This document shows positions 44,808-49,678 of a stretch of DNA of 64,000 bases, piece by piece (positions within the stretch are counted from its first letter, which is position 1; every line of letters begins with the position of its first letter). The position numbers and the translations under genes were made by a program. The notes beneath the pieces were generated by a model. It saw nothing but the letters and a program-made list of their open reading frames with translations. It did no database searches and was not told the DNA's origin. The stretch is from Selenomonas ruminantium AC2024. Its GTDB lineage: Bacteria; Bacillota; Negativicutes; Selenomonadales; Selenomonadaceae. The stretch covers positions 1,240,001-1,304,000 of the forward strand of contig NZ_JIAC01000001.1 of the NCBI RefSeq assembly GCF_000687995.1. Reading direction: 5' to 3'.

Positions 44808-46355
44808 GTGGACAAAAGAGAATCTGAAGCGGCGGCGGTGAAAGCGGCGGAAGAAGCCTTTGACCGCAGGCGGCGAACCATTGGTTTGTTCGGCGCCCCC
44901 ATACTGGCATTGCTGGTGTTTATGACACCCATTGACGGTTTGACTCTGGCCGCTCACAAATTGCTGGCCATCATGGTATTGGTTGCTCTTTGGTGGATCA
45001 CGGAGCCGGTGCCGATTCCTGTTACTTCCCTTATCGGGCCGACGCTGGCGGTTATTACCGGCGTGGTGCCGGTGGGCACAGCCTTTGCAGCCTTTGCCAA
45101 TTCCATGATTTTCCTGTTCATGGGCGGCTTTATTCTGGCCAAGGCCATGATGACCCATGGACTGGACAAGCGCTTTGCGTATTGGCTGCTATCCCGTGAA
45201 TGGGTGGGCTCGAATCCCAAGCGGATTTTCCTCGCGGTAGGTTTGGCAGCGGCCCTTTGCTCCGGCTGGGTCAGCAACACGGCTACTGCGGCTATGATGT
45301 TCCCCATCTGTCTGGGGCTCTTAACTTCCATCAAGGAAATGTTCGCCGCCAATGGGCGGGAAATTCATCTCCATGAATACAAATACGCGACCGGACTTAT
45401 GCTGATGACGGCTTACTCCTGCTCCATCGGCGGTGTTTTGACGCCCATTGGCACGCCGCCTAACCTCATCATGCTGGGCTTTTTGGATACCATGTGTGAT
45501 ATTCATGTTTCCTTCTTCCAGTGGATGACCTGGGGCCTTATTGCAATGGTTGTTTATTTTGTGATTGCCTATGTGGTGCTTTCTCATATGTTCCCCGCTG
45601 ATGTGGATCGGATTGAAGGCGCGGATGTGTTTATCAGAACCAAGCGGGAGGAACTGGGGAACTGGACCCGCGCGCAGAAAAATACACTGCTGGCTTTTGT
45701 CGTAGCTGTAACTCTCTGGATACTGCCGGGCTTTTTATCCATTGCCTTCGGCAGCACCGACCCCATGCTCAAAATGTATAACCGCTTGTTCCCGGAAGCC
45801 ATTGCGGCCATGGCAGGCGCGTTATTGCTGTTCCTGCTGCCGGTGAATTTCAAGGAACGTCAGTTCACTTTGAAATGGTCGGAAGCCATGCAGGGGATTG
45901 AATGGGGGACACTCATTCTCTTCGGCGGCGGTTTGGCCATGGGGGGTATGATGTACAAGACGGGCCTTTCCCAGTGGGTGGGCGACCTCATTGTCAGCTC
46001 CATGGGCGGCGCCCCCTCGGAAGTGGCCATGGTGGCGATCTTCTCGGTGATGGCGCTGCTGCTTTCGGAACTCACGAGCCATACGGCAGCTACCAATATG
46101 ATTGGCCCGCTGGCGATTACGGCAGCCCTTTCGGCTGGTATCAGCCCCGTGCCGGTGTCCGTAGGTATTGCGCTGTCGGCATCTTTGGGCTTTATGCTGC
46201 CGGTATCAACACCGCCTAACGCCATTGTTTACGCATCCGGTTACATTCCCATCACCAAGATGATCAAGACCGGTGTCTACATTGACTTTATCGGGATTGC
46301 CTGCGTGACGATTCCGCTGGCCATTTACTTTGTCAACTGGATTACGGGAATGTGA
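44808..46355 (+). CDS. DASS/SLC13-family sodium:anion symporter
   Basis: A 515-residue transporter with about 11-13 membrane helices after a charged 25-residue N-terminus. Two inverted hairpin motifs of the family are clear: SNTATAAMM and LTPIGTPPNLIM in the first half, SHTAATNM and MLPVSTPPNAIVYASGYIP in the second; they form the sodium and carboxylate sites (SNT and TP motifs). Substrates of relatives are C4-dicarboxylates, citrate or sulfate. RBS AAAGGAGG precedes the start at 44808 (GTG). The next three genes follow at 14, 14 and 10 bases, so the transporter is in one operon with the SHMT-like protein, larB and larC. Confidence 0.92.
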   Translation: MDKRESEAAAVKAAEEAFDRRRRTIGLFGAPILALLVFMTPIDGLTLAAHKLLAIMVLVALWWITEPVPIPVTSLIGPTLAVITGVVPVGTAFAAFANSMIFLFMGGFILAKAMMTHGLDKRFAYWLLSREWVGSNPKRIFLAVGLAAALCSGWVSNTATAAMMFPICLGLLTSIKEMFAANGREIHLHEYKYATGLMLMTAYSCSIGGVLTPIGTPPNLIMLGFLDTMCDIHVSFFQWMTWGLIAMVVYFVIAYVVLSHMFPADVDRIEGADVFIRTKREELGNWTRAQKNTLLAFVVAVTLWILPGFLSIAFGSTDPMLKMYNRLFPEAIAAMAGALLLFLLPVNFKERQFTLKWSEAMQGIEWGTLILFGGGLAMGGMMYKTGLSQWVGDLIVSSMGGAPSEVAMVAIFSVMALLLSELTSHTAATNMIGPLAITAALSAGISPVPVSVGIALSASLGFMLPVSTPPNAIVYASGYIPITKMIKTGVYIDFIGIACVTIPLAIYFVNWITGM

Positions 46356-46369
46356 GGAGGAATAAAGCT

Positions 46370-47707
46370 ATGCAAAATCAAACCCTTACAGAGAGCCTCG
46401 CGGCTTTCGACCCGGAAATATATGGGCTGTTGCAGGAGGAAATTCAAAAGCAGCGCTTTACGCTGTCGCTTCTGCCTACATCCAATGCGGTTTCTCCCTT
46501 TAGCGCATATTTGAAGGGCAGTATCTTCGGCAATGGCCAGCTGGATTATCATGCGGTGCAGAGCCATATGAAGTTGGAGGAGATTGCCGAGAAGCGGGCG
46601 GCAAAACTTTTTGGCGCCGACCATGCCATCGTGCGCATTTCTGACATCGCCGCGGCTTCCCGTGTGGTATTTCAGGCCTTGGCTACGACCGGGGATACAA
46701 TCCTCTCTTTCAACCGGCGCAAACTTGAACACTGCATTGGTGAGCATCTGCAGTATGATTTTATCTCGTTTAGCATAGAGCCGGAAACGGAGCAGATAGA
46801 TTTGGCCCGGGTGGAACAGCTGTCAAAAGCTCGCAAGCCCCGGCTGATTATCTATTCGCCTGTAAATTATCCCTTGCATCTGGATTATGCAAGACTTAAG
46901 GAAATTGCCAAGGCAGCAGGGGCGTATCTCTGGGTGGATATCGGCCAGAATGCCGGAGCTGTGGCCGCAGGCTGTGCGCCGTCACCTGTACCCTATGCAG
47001 ATGTGGTGACCCTGCCCACGGGCGATTCCCTGCAGGGGCCGCATAATGCGGTTATCCTCACCAGCAAGGAATTGGCGGACAATATGGATAAGGCCGTACT
47101 TGATACCGGTCATTCCATGGTGAAGAAAAATGTGCTGGCGGCTTTGGCTACTACATTCCTCGAAGCGGGCAGTGAAGCGTTCAAGGCCTACTGCGAGCAG
47201 GTGCTCAAAAATGCCAAGGCGTTGGAAAAAGGCCTTCACGACGCAGGCGTCCGCACGCTTTGCGGAAATACGGAAAACCATCTGGTTCTGCCCTGCCTGC
47301 CGGAGGGAACGGCACCGGATGATATGGTGGGAAAATTGCGGGAGGCAAGTTTCTTGGTGAAGGGGGATACTATGCTGACCTCGGATGATGGGGTGACTTT
47401 CCCCATCCTGCGTCTCTCATCCCTTGACCCCACGACCCGGGCCTTAAAGGAAACCTCCATGCAGGCCATCGGGAGAACCTTAGGCGAATTTATCCAGTCC
47501 AGTGGTGATGAAGCGGCGCAGAAGAAAGCTGCCACGCAGATTCGCGCGATACTGATGAATAAGCCGCTGTTCTCGGATGAATGGCTGCCGCAGAATATCA
47601 ACCTCACGCCGGGCTATGGTCAGAAAGACCTCAATATCGCCCAGGAAGTGGAAGCTGAGAAAAAAGAAGCGCAGGCAGAACGCATGTGGAGTTTTTGGGA
47701 CAATTAA
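46370..47707 (+). CDS. SHMT (GlyA)-like protein lacking the PLP lysine
   Basis: A 445-residue fold-type I homologue of serine hydroxymethyltransferase. LFGADHAIVR, GAYLWVDIGQNAGAVAAG, ADVVTLPTGDSLQGPHNAVIL and GNTENHLVL align without gaps over the core of E. coli GlyA. Key residues are changed: the PLP Schiff-base Lys in THKTLAGPR becomes Asp219 (TGDSLQGPH), the stacking His in VDMAHVAG becomes Gln (VDIGQNAG), the phosphate-site SGSQAN becomes DIAAAS, and the folate/Glu region SENYTSP becomes TSNAVSP. It therefore cannot be a normal PLP enzyme. The frame is intact and has a strong RBS (GAGGAGG), so it is kept by selection. Its job is unknown; it lies between a transporter and larB. Confidence 0.85.
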   Translation: MQNQTLTESLAAFDPEIYGLLQEEIQKQRFTLSLLPTSNAVSPFSAYLKGSIFGNGQLDYHAVQSHMKLEEIAEKRAAKLFGADHAIVRISDIAAASRVVFQALATTGDTILSFNRRKLEHCIGEHLQYDFISFSIEPETEQIDLARVEQLSKARKPRLIIYSPVNYPLHLDYARLKEIAKAAGAYLWVDIGQNAGAVAAGCAPSPVPYADVVTLPTGDSLQGPHNAVILTSKELADNMDKAVLDTGHSMVKKNVLAALATTFLEAGSEAFKAYCEQVLKNAKALEKGLHDAGVRTLCGNTENHLVLPCLPEGTAPDDMVGKLREASFLVKGDTMLTSDDGVTFPILRLSSLDPTTRALKETSMQAIGRTLGEFIQSSGDEAAQKKAATQIRAILMNKPLFSDEWLPQNINLTPGYGQKDLNIAQEVEAEKKEAQAERMWSFWDN

Positions 47708-47721
47708 GGATATTACAAGAG

Positions 47722-48480
47722 ATGAAGAAAAAAGACATCGTAAAACTGTTGCAGGATTATAAGCAAGGAACATTGAGTGAAGAGGAAGCGGCGGCGAAGA
47801 TTGCCGAAGTTCCCTTTGAGGAAATGCAGTTTGCGGAAATCGACCATCACCGGGAACTGCGGCAGGGGATGCCCGAGGTGATTTATGCCGCTGGTAAGAC
47901 CCCGGAGCAGGTACGGGATATCTTTTCCTCGCTTTACAGCCACAGCGACGGAAATCTACTGGCTACACGGGCCAGCAGAGAGCATTATGACAAGGTGCTG
48001 GAAAAAGTTCCTGAGGCTGAGTATGACGAAACAGCGCGGCTTATCTATCTTGACCGGGACAGAAGTTTGCAGCGGGATGAGAACCATCAGATTTTGATTC
48101 TGACTGCCGGTACCAGTGATGTACCGGTGGCTGAGGAAGCGCGGCTTACGGCGTATCTTTTTGGCAATGATGTTAAGACCTGCTATGACTGCGGAGTGGC
48201 GGGCATTCACCGCCTCTTTGCCCATCTGCCGGAGATTAAGGCGGCAAACGTCATTATCGTCATTGCCGGCATGGAAGGTGCTTTGGCCAGTGTGGTGGGC
48301 GGTCTTACGGATAAACCCGTCATTGCGGTGCCCACCAGTGTGGGCTATGGTGCTTCCTTCAAAGGAGTCGCGGCGTTGCTTTCCATGCTGAACAGCTGTG
48401 CCATGGGCGTCTCTGTGGTAAATATTGACAACGGCTTTGGTGCAGGTGCCTTGGCCAGCAAGATAAACAAGTTGAGGTGA
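47722..48480 (+). CDS. larB: Nickel-pincer cofactor biosynthesis protein LarB
   Basis: A 252-residue enzyme that carboxylates and hydrolyses nicotinic acid adenine dinucleotide, the first step of nickel-pincer nucleotide synthesis. The C-terminal half is the PurE-like domain (ILTAGTSDVPVAEEA, TCYDCGVAGIHR with the conserved Cys, VIAGMEGALASVVGGL, VPTSVGYGASFKGVAALL), preceded by the LarB-specific N-terminus with the DHHRELRQGMPEVIYAAGKT motif. ATG 47722 is preferred; an in-frame TTG at 47701 and an ATG at 47686 lie at the end of the previous gene. larC follows after 10 bases. Confidence 0.93.
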   Translation: MKKKDIVKLLQDYKQGTLSEEEAAAKIAEVPFEEMQFAEIDHHRELRQGMPEVIYAAGKTPEQVRDIFSSLYSHSDGNLLATRASREHYDKVLEKVPEAEYDETARLIYLDRDRSLQRDENHQILILTAGTSDVPVAEEARLTAYLFGNDVKTCYDCGVAGIHRLFAHLPEIKAANVIIVIAGMEGALASVVGGLTDKPVIAVPTSVGYGASFKGVAALLSMLNSCAMGVSVVNIDNGFGAGALASKINKLR

Positions 48481-48490
48481 CTGTACTTAA

Positions 48491-49678
48491 ATGAAAGCGT
48501 TGTATTTTGATTGCTTTGCCGGTATCAGCGGCAATATGTTTTTGGGAGCTTTGCTGCAGGCAGGAGTGCCCATAGCTTATCTGGAAAAGGAACTGGGCAA
48601 ACTGCCTATGTCTGACGAGTTTAAGCTGGAAGTAAATGAAACCTCCCGTAACGGCATTCATGCCCTGTATGTCGATGTCATTCTGCTGAATGTCAAGGAA
48701 CACCATCATGGTCATCGCAGGATGGCGGATATTCGCGAACTGCTGGAAAAATCCGCGCTGTCCATGGCGGTAAAACAGCAGGCTTTGTCCATCTTTGAGG
48801 TCATCGCTGCGGCGGAAGGAAAGGTGCACGGCAAGCCGGCAGAGGAAGTGGCCTTCCATGAAGTGGGGGCTGTGGATTCCATTGTCGATATTGTCGGGGC
48901 GGCTATCTGTCTGGATTATTTGGAAGTGGAGCGCATCTTTGTATCCCGCCTGACTGTGGGCGGCGGCTTTGTCAAGTGTGCTCATGGCCTGTTGCCTGTA
49001 CCTGCTCCAGCTGTAGCTGAGCTCTTAATGGGCTGGCAGACCATCAAAGGCTCGGAGGAAAAGGAACTGGTAACACCTACGGGGGCCGGTATCGTTCGGG
49101 CACTGGGGCTGTACAGTGAAAGCCTGCCACAAGGTTTTGTGACGGAATGTATTGGCTATGGGGCAGGCAGTCATGAGCTAGCTATTCCCAACGTACTGCG
49201 GGTGTATCGTGGGGAGTACAACGGTGCCGTTGACAGTAAACTCGCAGTCATTGAAGTCAATATTGACGATATGAATCCCCAGATTTATGGCTATCTCTAC
49301 GAAAAACTGCTGGCGGCAGGGGCACTCGATGTCTGGACAACGCCAATCTTCATGAAGAAGAATCGTCCGGCACAGATGCTTTCGGTATTGGTGGATGAAG
49401 AAAAGCAGAATGCCTGCGTGGCCATTATCTTTGCGGAAACCACAAGCATTGGCCTGCGGATTATGCCTGTGGCCCAGCGGCTGGAGGCTTCGCGTCATAT
49501 TGCCAAGGTGGAGACAAAATACGGCGTGGTGAATTGCAAGGTCAGTGCCTGGGAAGGAAAGATTTGCAGTGTATCGCCGGAGTATGAGGATTGCAAGGCG
49601 CTGGCAGTCGAGAAGCAGGTGCCGCTGAAACTTATCCAGCAAGAAGCGATGAGGGTTATTGATGAGCGGTTAGGTTAG
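48491..49678 (+). CDS. larC: Nickel-pincer cofactor biosynthesis protein LarC (nickel insertion)
   Basis: A 395-residue CTP-dependent cyclometallase that puts nickel into the pincer cofactor. YFDCFAGISGNMFLGALL, a His-rich loop KEHHHGHRRM (about 76-85), VAFHEVGAVDSIVDIVGAA and ELVTPTGAGIVRAL are typical. It is one uninterrupted reading frame, unlike the two-part larC1/larC2 of Lactobacillus plantarum that needs a frameshift. larA (lactate racemase) and larE (sulfur insertion) are not in the window, so cofactor synthesis and the client enzyme must be completed elsewhere. A TTGACNNGTCAA-pair terminator follows. Confidence 0.94.
   Translation: MKALYFDCFAGISGNMFLGALLQAGVPIAYLEKELGKLPMSDEFKLEVNETSRNGIHALYVDVILLNVKEHHHGHRRMADIRELLEKSALSMAVKQQALSIFEVIAAAEGKVHGKPAEEVAFHEVGAVDSIVDIVGAAICLDYLEVERIFVSRLTVGGGFVKCAHGLLPVPAPAVAELLMGWQTIKGSEEKELVTPTGAGIVRALGLYSESLPQGFVTECIGYGAGSHELAIPNVLRVYRGEYNGAVDSKLAVIEVNIDDMNPQIYGYLYEKLLAAGALDVWTTPIFMKKNRPAQMLSVLVDEEKQNACVAIIFAETTSIGLRIMPVAQRLEASRHIAKVETKYGVVNCKVSAWEGKICSVSPEYEDCKALAVEKQVPLKLIQQEAMRVIDERLG

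What the first reader, a model, noticed from the sequence alone, without database searches (positions are those of the whole stretch)
46370..47707. SHMT homologue with the PLP lysine replaced by Asp: a probable pseudoenzyme
From VDIGQNAG to TGDSLQGPH the protein aligns gap-free with E. coli GlyA (recalled sequence) and the Schiff-base Lys falls on Asp219. The stacking His, phosphate-binding Ser-Gly-Ser and the Glu of the SEN motif are also changed, yet scaffold motifs are retained. The intact frame, strong ribosome site and operon position show it is functional. It may bind a ligand (PLP, folate or amino acid) as a sensor, or have new chemistry.
Basis: partly seen in the sequence, partly recalled or inferred. 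Interest (0 to 1): 0.72.

Follow-up and report, generated by a model that had tools for sequence, protein, structure and literature searches.

The report
Lysine-less SHMT relative beside transporters
The gene encodes a relative of the glycine-making enzyme SHMT that has lost its catalytic lysine; it belongs to an old, conserved family of look-alikes that usually sit right behind a transporter gene in two unrelated bacterial families, and its job is unknown.

Summary
The core observation holds. The 445-aa ORF at 46370-47707 is an SHMT homologue (Pfam E 3.7e-50) whose Schiff-base lysine is Asp219. One stated detail is wrong: the PLP-stacking His is kept (H121). It is no strain mutation: dN/dS is about 0.06-0.10, the genome has a normal glyA and a second Lys-less paralogue, and 144 distinct Lys-less relatives, from Selenomonadaceae and Succinivibrionaceae (two phyla), form one clade (96-row tree, support 100). 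Asp is common, not essential (D 114, G 23, E 2, A 1, N 1, deleted 3). New and invariant are Arg117-Lys118 (144/144 versus 0/76 Lys-bearing SHMTs) and Ser163-Pro164; Arg348 and Asp190 are retained. larB/larC linkage is local. The wider linkage is upstream: 109 of 142 evaluable Lys-less genes directly follow a transporter of four kinds (mostly organic-anion type), against 0 of 83 Lys-bearing controls. I propose that the pocket was rebuilt to bind an anionic metabolite, probably the transported one, without a PLP Schiff base, and that the protein is a cytosolic partner (sensor, regulator or acceptor) of transport. New PLP-independent chemistry is the main rival. Ligand and activity are untested.

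The parts
46370..47707 (+). Lys-less SHMT homologue (pSHMT), 445 aa, ATG start
   Evidence: 707.8 bits with the family model A1
47024..47026 (+). codon of Asp219 (GAT), at the column of the PLP Schiff-base lysine
   Evidence: D in 114 of 144 distinct Lys-less relatives
46718..46723 (+). codons of Arg117-Lys118, invariant dyad of the Lys-less family
   Evidence: 144 of 144 Lys-less, 0 of 76 Lys-bearing
46730..46732 (+). codon of His121 = PLP-stacking His of SHMT, retained
46937..46939 (+). codon of Asp190 = PLP N1 Asp (Thermus Asp197), retained
   Evidence: 144 of 144; role from PMC10397204 passages
47108..47113 (+). codons of Gly247-His248; position 248 is Gln in 76 of 76 Lys-bearing SHMTs, His in 140 of 144 Lys-less
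47411..47413 (+). codon of Arg348 = substrate-carboxylate Arg (Thermus Arg358), retained
   Evidence: 144 of 144; role
47582..47704 (+). C-terminal extension beyond SHMT, from conserved Trp405, with a predicted helix 419-444 of lower confidence
46356..46360 (+). probable ribosome site GGAGG, right after the transporter stop codon (46353-46355)
44808..46355 (+). DASS-family (SLC13/VcINDY-like) anion symporter, 515 aa, directly upstream
   Evidence: TIGR00785 298.8 bits; closest solved relatives VcINDY and human NaCT
47722..48480 (+). larB-like gene (AIR carboxylase domain); local neighbour, linkage not conserved
48491..49678 (+). larC-like nickel insertion protein gene; local neighbour

Best explanation
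It is a member of a monophyletic family of SHMT-fold proteins, not described in the papers searched here, that gave up the PLP Schiff base. The old active site was rebuilt with new positive residues (Arg89, Arg98, Arg117, Lys118) plus His248, with Arg348 retained, and most likely binds a small anionic metabolite. The gene mostly lies straight behind a transporter gene and, by inspection of tree and neighbourhoods, stays with transporters when the transporter family changes; so the ligand is probably the transported anion (a di- or tricarboxylate in the DASS cases) or a close metabolite. The protein most likely works as a cytosolic ligand-binding partner that senses, receives or gates the transported compound. 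Shown: lysine loss, one clade, purifying selection, new invariant residues, transporter linkage. Inferred: PLP-free state, ligand, partner role.
For: 144 distinct homologues lack the Lys and 76 have it; the family model splits the same two groups by score (438 bits or more versus 381 or less). One clade, SH-aLRT 100, among 71 Lys-less and 25 Lys-bearing representatives. 17 columns set the family apart, among them four new positive residues (R89 134/144, R98 136/144, R117 and K118 144/144; R117 and K118 in 0 of 76 Lys-bearing), while D190 and R348 (144/144) and mostly H121 are kept. The PLP-phosphate cup named in PMC10397204 (Gly94, Ser95, Tyr51*) reads I93, A94, Q57 in the window. Two SHMT loops are deleted. 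dN/dS against five orthologues 0.06, 0.06, 0.09, 0.10, 0.08. Transporter directly upstream in 109 of 142 evaluable Lys-less genes: DASS 419-aa type 43, CitMHS/GntP-like 40, DASS 515-aa type 17, GPH symporter 9; against 0 of 83 evaluable Lys-bearing controls, 14 of them glyA loci of the same bacterial family. The DASS-pSHMT pair occurs in both Selenomonadaceae and Succinivibrionaceae.
Against: Linkage is not universal: 33 of 142 lack one of the four transporter kinds within 700 nt (8 are second copies in tandem behind a DASS-pSHMT pair, 4 have the DASS gene 0.7-2 kb upstream), among them the window genome's own second paralogue and 13 of 22 distinct Succinivibrionaceae genes. The four transporter references were picked after looking at the neighbourhoods. 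The transporters also occur without a pSHMT neighbour: DASS 515-aa type in 112 of 189 genomes, CitMHS/GntP-like in 116, including genera in which no pSHMT was found; 419-aa DASS at 80% identity in G039, which has none. GPH symporters usually carry sugars (family knowledge), and the CitMHS assignment is borderline. Unrelated transporters argue against one physical docking mode. Nothing here shows ligand binding or loss of PLP binding; the PDB titles of SHMT K226Q and K226M mutants with glycine or serine (1yjs, 1yjy) suggest that a Lys-less SHMT can fold and bind amino acid.
Confidence: 0.45

Rival explanations
1. It is an enzyme with new, PLP-independent chemistry on the imported compound. The invariant polar set (R117, K118, S163, D190, R348, with H248) is a new active site, and the transporter brings in the substrate.
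For: R117 and K118 are invariant in 144 of 144 proteins over two phyla, stricter than a loose binding site needs; transporter families change while the gene stays linked, which fits a common substrate better than a common docking surface.
Against: No known chemistry or cofactor motif recognised; position 219 itself is D, G, E, A, N or deleted, so it is not a conserved catalytic residue. The protein changes faster than its transporter (dN 0.11-0.17 versus about 0.03 against the four more distant orthologues).
Confidence: 0.3
2. It still uses PLP, held without a Schiff base (as in dehydratases that replace the Lys by His; recalled) or bound through a migrated lysine, K118.
For: N1-Asp D190 (144/144), stacking His121 (117/144) and carboxylate Arg348 (144/144) are retained; solved Lys-less SHMT mutants with glycine or serine exist (titles).
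Against: Phosphate-cup residues and the O3' residue His200 (Q193 in 135/144) are changed, as are the Asn98 and His125 props of the N1-Asp (S97 136/144, G124 110/144).
Confidence: 0.13
3. It is a regulatory subunit that pairs with the true GlyA, as Lys-less SPTLC1 pairs with its active partner (recalled).
For: SHMTs are dimers or tetramers (recalled); the host genome has a normal glyA.
Against: In the host genome glyA lies about 0.5 Mb away (C1:788903), and no locus read held both a Lys-less and a Lys-bearing gene; the linkage is with transporters.
Confidence: 0.07
4. It is a decaying glyA copy or a chance alignment.
For: Catalytic Lys absent.
Against: dN/dS about 0.06-0.10, one clade, 17 class-defining columns.
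Confidence: 0.01

Closest known systems
Serine hydroxymethyltransferase (GlyA; Pfam PF00464, NCBIfam NF000586)
   Same: Full-length homology, 31% identity to B. stearothermophilus SHMT and TM 0.89 by target length; N1-Asp, stacking His and carboxylate Arg kept
   Different: No Schiff-base Lys, phosphate cup changed, two loops deleted, Glu of SEN and catalytic Glu changed, extra C-terminal tail; below the NCBIfam cut-off (206.6 against 335)
Lys-less fold-type-I proteins: SPTLC1, N-terminal half of the glycine decarboxylase P-protein, ColD/E1 dehydratases (recalled, from no call)
   Same: Fold-type-I scaffold without the Schiff-base Lys
   Different: Those act as subunits or use His in place of Lys; here Asp or Gly, SHMT lineage, transporter linkage
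B. stearothermophilus SHMT K226Q / K226M mutants (PDB 1yjs, 1yjy; titles seen)
   Same: SHMT fold without the Lys
   Different: Man-made single change

Membership tests
SHMT (functional enzyme) | SHMT fold and full-length sequence homology | tested here: met
SHMT (functional enzyme) | PLP Schiff-base Lys (T-H-K-T) | tested here: not met
   Asp219; none of the 144 proteins of its clade has it
SHMT (functional enzyme) | PLP phosphate cup (Ser-Gly-Ser loop, Tyr51*) | tested here: not met
   D92-I93-A94, Q57
SHMT (functional enzyme) | Catalytic Glu (Thermus Glu53*) | tested here: not met
   D59 in the window; D 82, G 24, E 13 of 144 against E in 76 of 76; Asp could still serve as an acid
SHMT (functional enzyme) | N1-Asp, stacking His, carboxylate Arg | tested here: met
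   D190, H121, R348
SHMT (functional enzyme) | Serine/glycine/THF activity | not testable with these tools
   needs purified protein
pseudoenzyme (conserved loss of a catalytic residue) | catalytic residue absent across a conserved, selected clade | tested here: met
pseudoenzyme (conserved loss of a catalytic residue) | no catalysis | not testable with these tools
   migrated residues such as K118 are possible
transporter-linked gene pair | conserved adjacency beyond close relatives | tested here: met
   109 of 142 versus 0 of 83; two phyla, though only 9 of 22 distinct Succinivibrionaceae genes within 700 nt

The most novel reading that the evidence does not exclude
The lysine has migrated: invariant Lys118, three residues before the old stacking His, forms a Schiff base either with a keto acid (class-I-aldolase-like, no PLP) or with PLP from another side, so that an SHMT scaffold now carries out a new reaction on compounds delivered by dedicated DASS, CitMHS-like or GPH transporters.
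Probability: 0.13. Interest if true: 0.82.

Novelty: new variant of a known kind. Interest (0 to 1): 0.62.

Why it matters
SHMT is a central, highly conserved enzyme of one-carbon metabolism, and the seven literature searches made here listed no natural Lys-less SHMT family. This one forms a single clade, occurs in two phyla and mostly lies behind transporter genes, many of them for organic anions. It offers a clean test of how a PLP fold is turned into something else, and a possible handle on organic-acid traffic in Selenomonas and Succinivibrio relatives. These genes match the Pfam SHMT family far above its cut-off (171 against 27 bits for the window protein) and could be mistaken for glyA.

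Tried and rejected
Strain mutation or decay: rejected. larB/larC operon as the functional clue: rejected, larB follows only in the window and 7 distinct close relatives; no LarA N-terminal domain above the Pfam cut-off in the genome (22.3 bits against 23.3). Asp219 as a new catalytic residue: rejected, replaced or deleted in 30 of 144. Physical docking read from the C-terminal tails: behind the conserved Trp the tail is 41 residues in 16 of 17 genes linked to the 515-aa DASS, 36-43 in 23 of 43 linked to the 419-aa DASS, 23-25 in 39 of 40 CitMHS/GntP-linked and 25 in 9 of 9 GPH-linked ones, and 7 in 8 of 8 second copies of tandem pairs; but 5 of the 43 also have 7, 15 of the 43 gave no site by my pattern, and tails and transporters both follow the tree, so I do not use it as proof. 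Wider spread: class sample at E 1e-108 (62 of 300 genomes match; outside the family only G220 and G308, both Lys-bearing), phylum sample at E 1e-108 (7 of 398, all the same family), order of the Succinivibrio MAG at E 1e-95 (12 of 247, all genomes already found); more distant Lys-less proteins below these thresholds would have been missed. Literature: seven searches listed no such family; three of them returned no paper at all; the library lacks most subscription papers and all preprints. Of PMC10211241 I saw passages only (it names SHMT2 as a partner of a pseudo-E2, no Lys-less SHMT); of PMC10397204 passages only; of the other papers only the listings.

Counting rules: 220 distinct homologues after dropping matches that cover under 330 model positions and collapsing identical cores; the two groups are defined by the Lys column itself. 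The alignment held 125 and included one Lys-bearing protein (L149). In some searches and 79 genes with under 600 nt of upstream sequence were set aside (2 Lys-less in both; 6 of 76 controls, 7 of 90). The controls were scanned for those four reference types only. Genome counts for the host family (89 of 189, 16 of 30 genera; G082 has a further fragment) and for the family of the Succinivibrio MAG (36 of 56) are my hand counts of rows; 22 distinct proteins of the latter were read residue by residue. That family f1 is Selenomonadaceae is inferred from contigs of identical length to named Selenomonas records.

Full report
WHAT IS THERE. The ORF at 46370-47707 (+) begins with ATG behind a GGAGG site and encodes 445 aa. 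Its only Pfam hit is SHMT (E 3.7e-50); NCBIfam's SHMT model matches at 206.6 bits, below its cut-off of 335. An AlphaFold2 model (mean pLDDT 91.9, pTM 0.89) matches SHMT structures first: the 50 rows shown are SHMTs (best 1kkj, TM 0.89 by target length, 31% identity). The genome also holds a normal glyA (L003, THKT motif) and a second Lys-less paralogue at 49% identity (L002).

RESIDUES. Active-site roles are taken from passages of PMC10397204 on Thermus SHMT. By alignment, Lys226 is Asp219; Gly94 and Ser95 of the phosphate cup are I93 and A94; Tyr51* is Q57; His200 is Q193; Asn98 is S97; Glu53* is D59. Kept are Asp197 (D190), His122 (H121), His312 (H304) and Arg358 (R348). Seven residues of the loop that carries two conserved tyrosines and six residues of a second loop are deleted.

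FAMILY. A model from 18 relatives (A1) separates two groups in 189 genomes of the host family: Lys-less proteins at 518-712 bits and GlyA at 337 or less. By my count of those rows, 89 of 189 genomes in 16 of 30 genera carry at least one Lys-less protein. Sampled class, phylum and order searches at strict thresholds found no others. Of 220 distinct homologues, 144 lack the Lys and 76 have it. The Lys column in the 144 reads D 114, G 23, E 2, A 1, N 1, deleted 3; 22 of the 23 G are Succinivibrionaceae proteins. In a tree of 96 representatives the 71 Lys-less proteins are one side of a branch with support 100 (quick search, SH-aLRT only). The Lys-bearing protein that branches next to the split, L149, comes from another family of the same class.

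SELECTION AND NEW CONSTRAINTS. Nei-Gojobori dN/dS against five orthologues: 0.012/0.194 (G156), 0.110/1.90 (G146), 0.148/1.67 (G144), 0.165/1.74 (G147), 0.170/2.18 (G164); the transporter gives about 0.03/1.0 for the last four (dS near or above 1 is only rough). Seventeen columns are at least 93% one residue in the Lys-less group and at most 7% that residue in the 76 Lys-bearing proteins: S33 P36 R89 S97 R98 R117 K118 S163 P164 W188 Q193 G247 H248 L259 T337 S350 W405. R117-K118 is present in 144 of 144 and 0 of 76. The joint gain of positive residues with the retained carboxylate Arg is the basis of the anion-pocket inference; geometry was not measured.

NEIGHBOURS. In the window the order is DASS symporter, pSHMT, larB, larC, with gaps of 10-14 nt. 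larB follows in the window and 7 further distinct relatives but not in the orthologue loci L037, L038, L039 and L041. The upstream transporter is the wider pattern: 109 of 142 evaluable Lys-less genes have one of four transporter kinds within 700 nt on the same strand, against 0 of 70 evaluable Lys-bearing controls and 0 of 83 after 16 more glyA loci of the same bacterial family were fetched. The four references were chosen after looking at the neighbourhoods, so this describes the linkage and is not a blind test. Kinds: DASS 419-aa type (VcINDY-like), DASS 515-aa type, a CitMHS/GntP-like protein (borderline Pfam CitMHS 31.8 against 31.9 in one of two tested; no solved relative) and a GPH symporter. 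Of the 33 without, 8 are second copies in tandem pairs and 4 in Succinivibrionaceae have the DASS gene 0.7-2 kb upstream; the rest, including the window genome's own second paralogue and 9 Succinivibrionaceae genes, have none of the four kinds near by. The 419-aa DASS type sits beside most of the early branches of the Lys-less clade, in both phyla, so it is probably the first partner (inference by inspection; several early forks are weakly supported). All three non-GPH transporters also occur in genomes without a pSHMT.

MECHANISM. A family that keeps the substrate-carboxylate Arg and the N1-Asp, changes the PLP-phosphate and Lys contacts, gains Arg and Lys residues and mostly stays with changing transporters is best read as an anion-binding SHMT derivative serving transport (0.45). 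Transporter swapping favours a shared ligand over a shared docking surface, which also leaves room for a new enzyme (0.30). Retained PLP use (0.13) and pairing with GlyA (0.07) are less likely. Steps shown: Lys loss, clade, constraint, linkage. Steps inferred: PLP-free state, ligand, partner role.

KNOWN OR NEW. Lys-less fold-type-I proteins are known (recalled examples: SPTLC1, the P-protein N-terminal half, ColD). Seven literature searches listed no natural Lys-less SHMT family and no such transporter linkage; absence from this open-access library is weak evidence. I file it as a new variant of a known kind: a pseudoenzyme-like branch of SHMT, not a functional SHMT by the tests above.

Noticed in passing
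window 47722-49678: larB and larC stand without a recognisable larA: the LarA N-terminal domain reaches only 22.3 bits (cut-off 23.3), over part of the model, in the whole genome.
   Followed up: partly
L149 6910-8190 (-), L150 6697-7971 (-): A Lys-bearing SHMT-like protein in another family of the class branches next to the Lys-less clade (L149); in L149 the next gene downstream is a sodium:dicarboxylate symporter (SDF), a hint that a transporter link may predate the lysine loss.
   Followed up: partly
L042 7289-11404, L045 6103-12016: Tandem arrays: transporter-pSHMT-pSHMT in L042 and transporter-pSHMT-transporter-pSHMT in L045; the 8 second copies not directly behind a transporter all have a 7-residue tail after the conserved Trp.
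   Followed up: partly
L034 (G156:C7:331943-333486): The DASS transporter beside the 98%-identical pSHMT orthologue is split into two overlapping frames; assembly error or real frameshift not checked.
   Followed up: no
L250-L269: In these Succinivibrionaceae loci the pSHMT is mostly followed by genes that look like a tRNA-dihydrouridine synthase and an aldo-keto reductase (my reading of the sequences, no family search).
   Followed up: no
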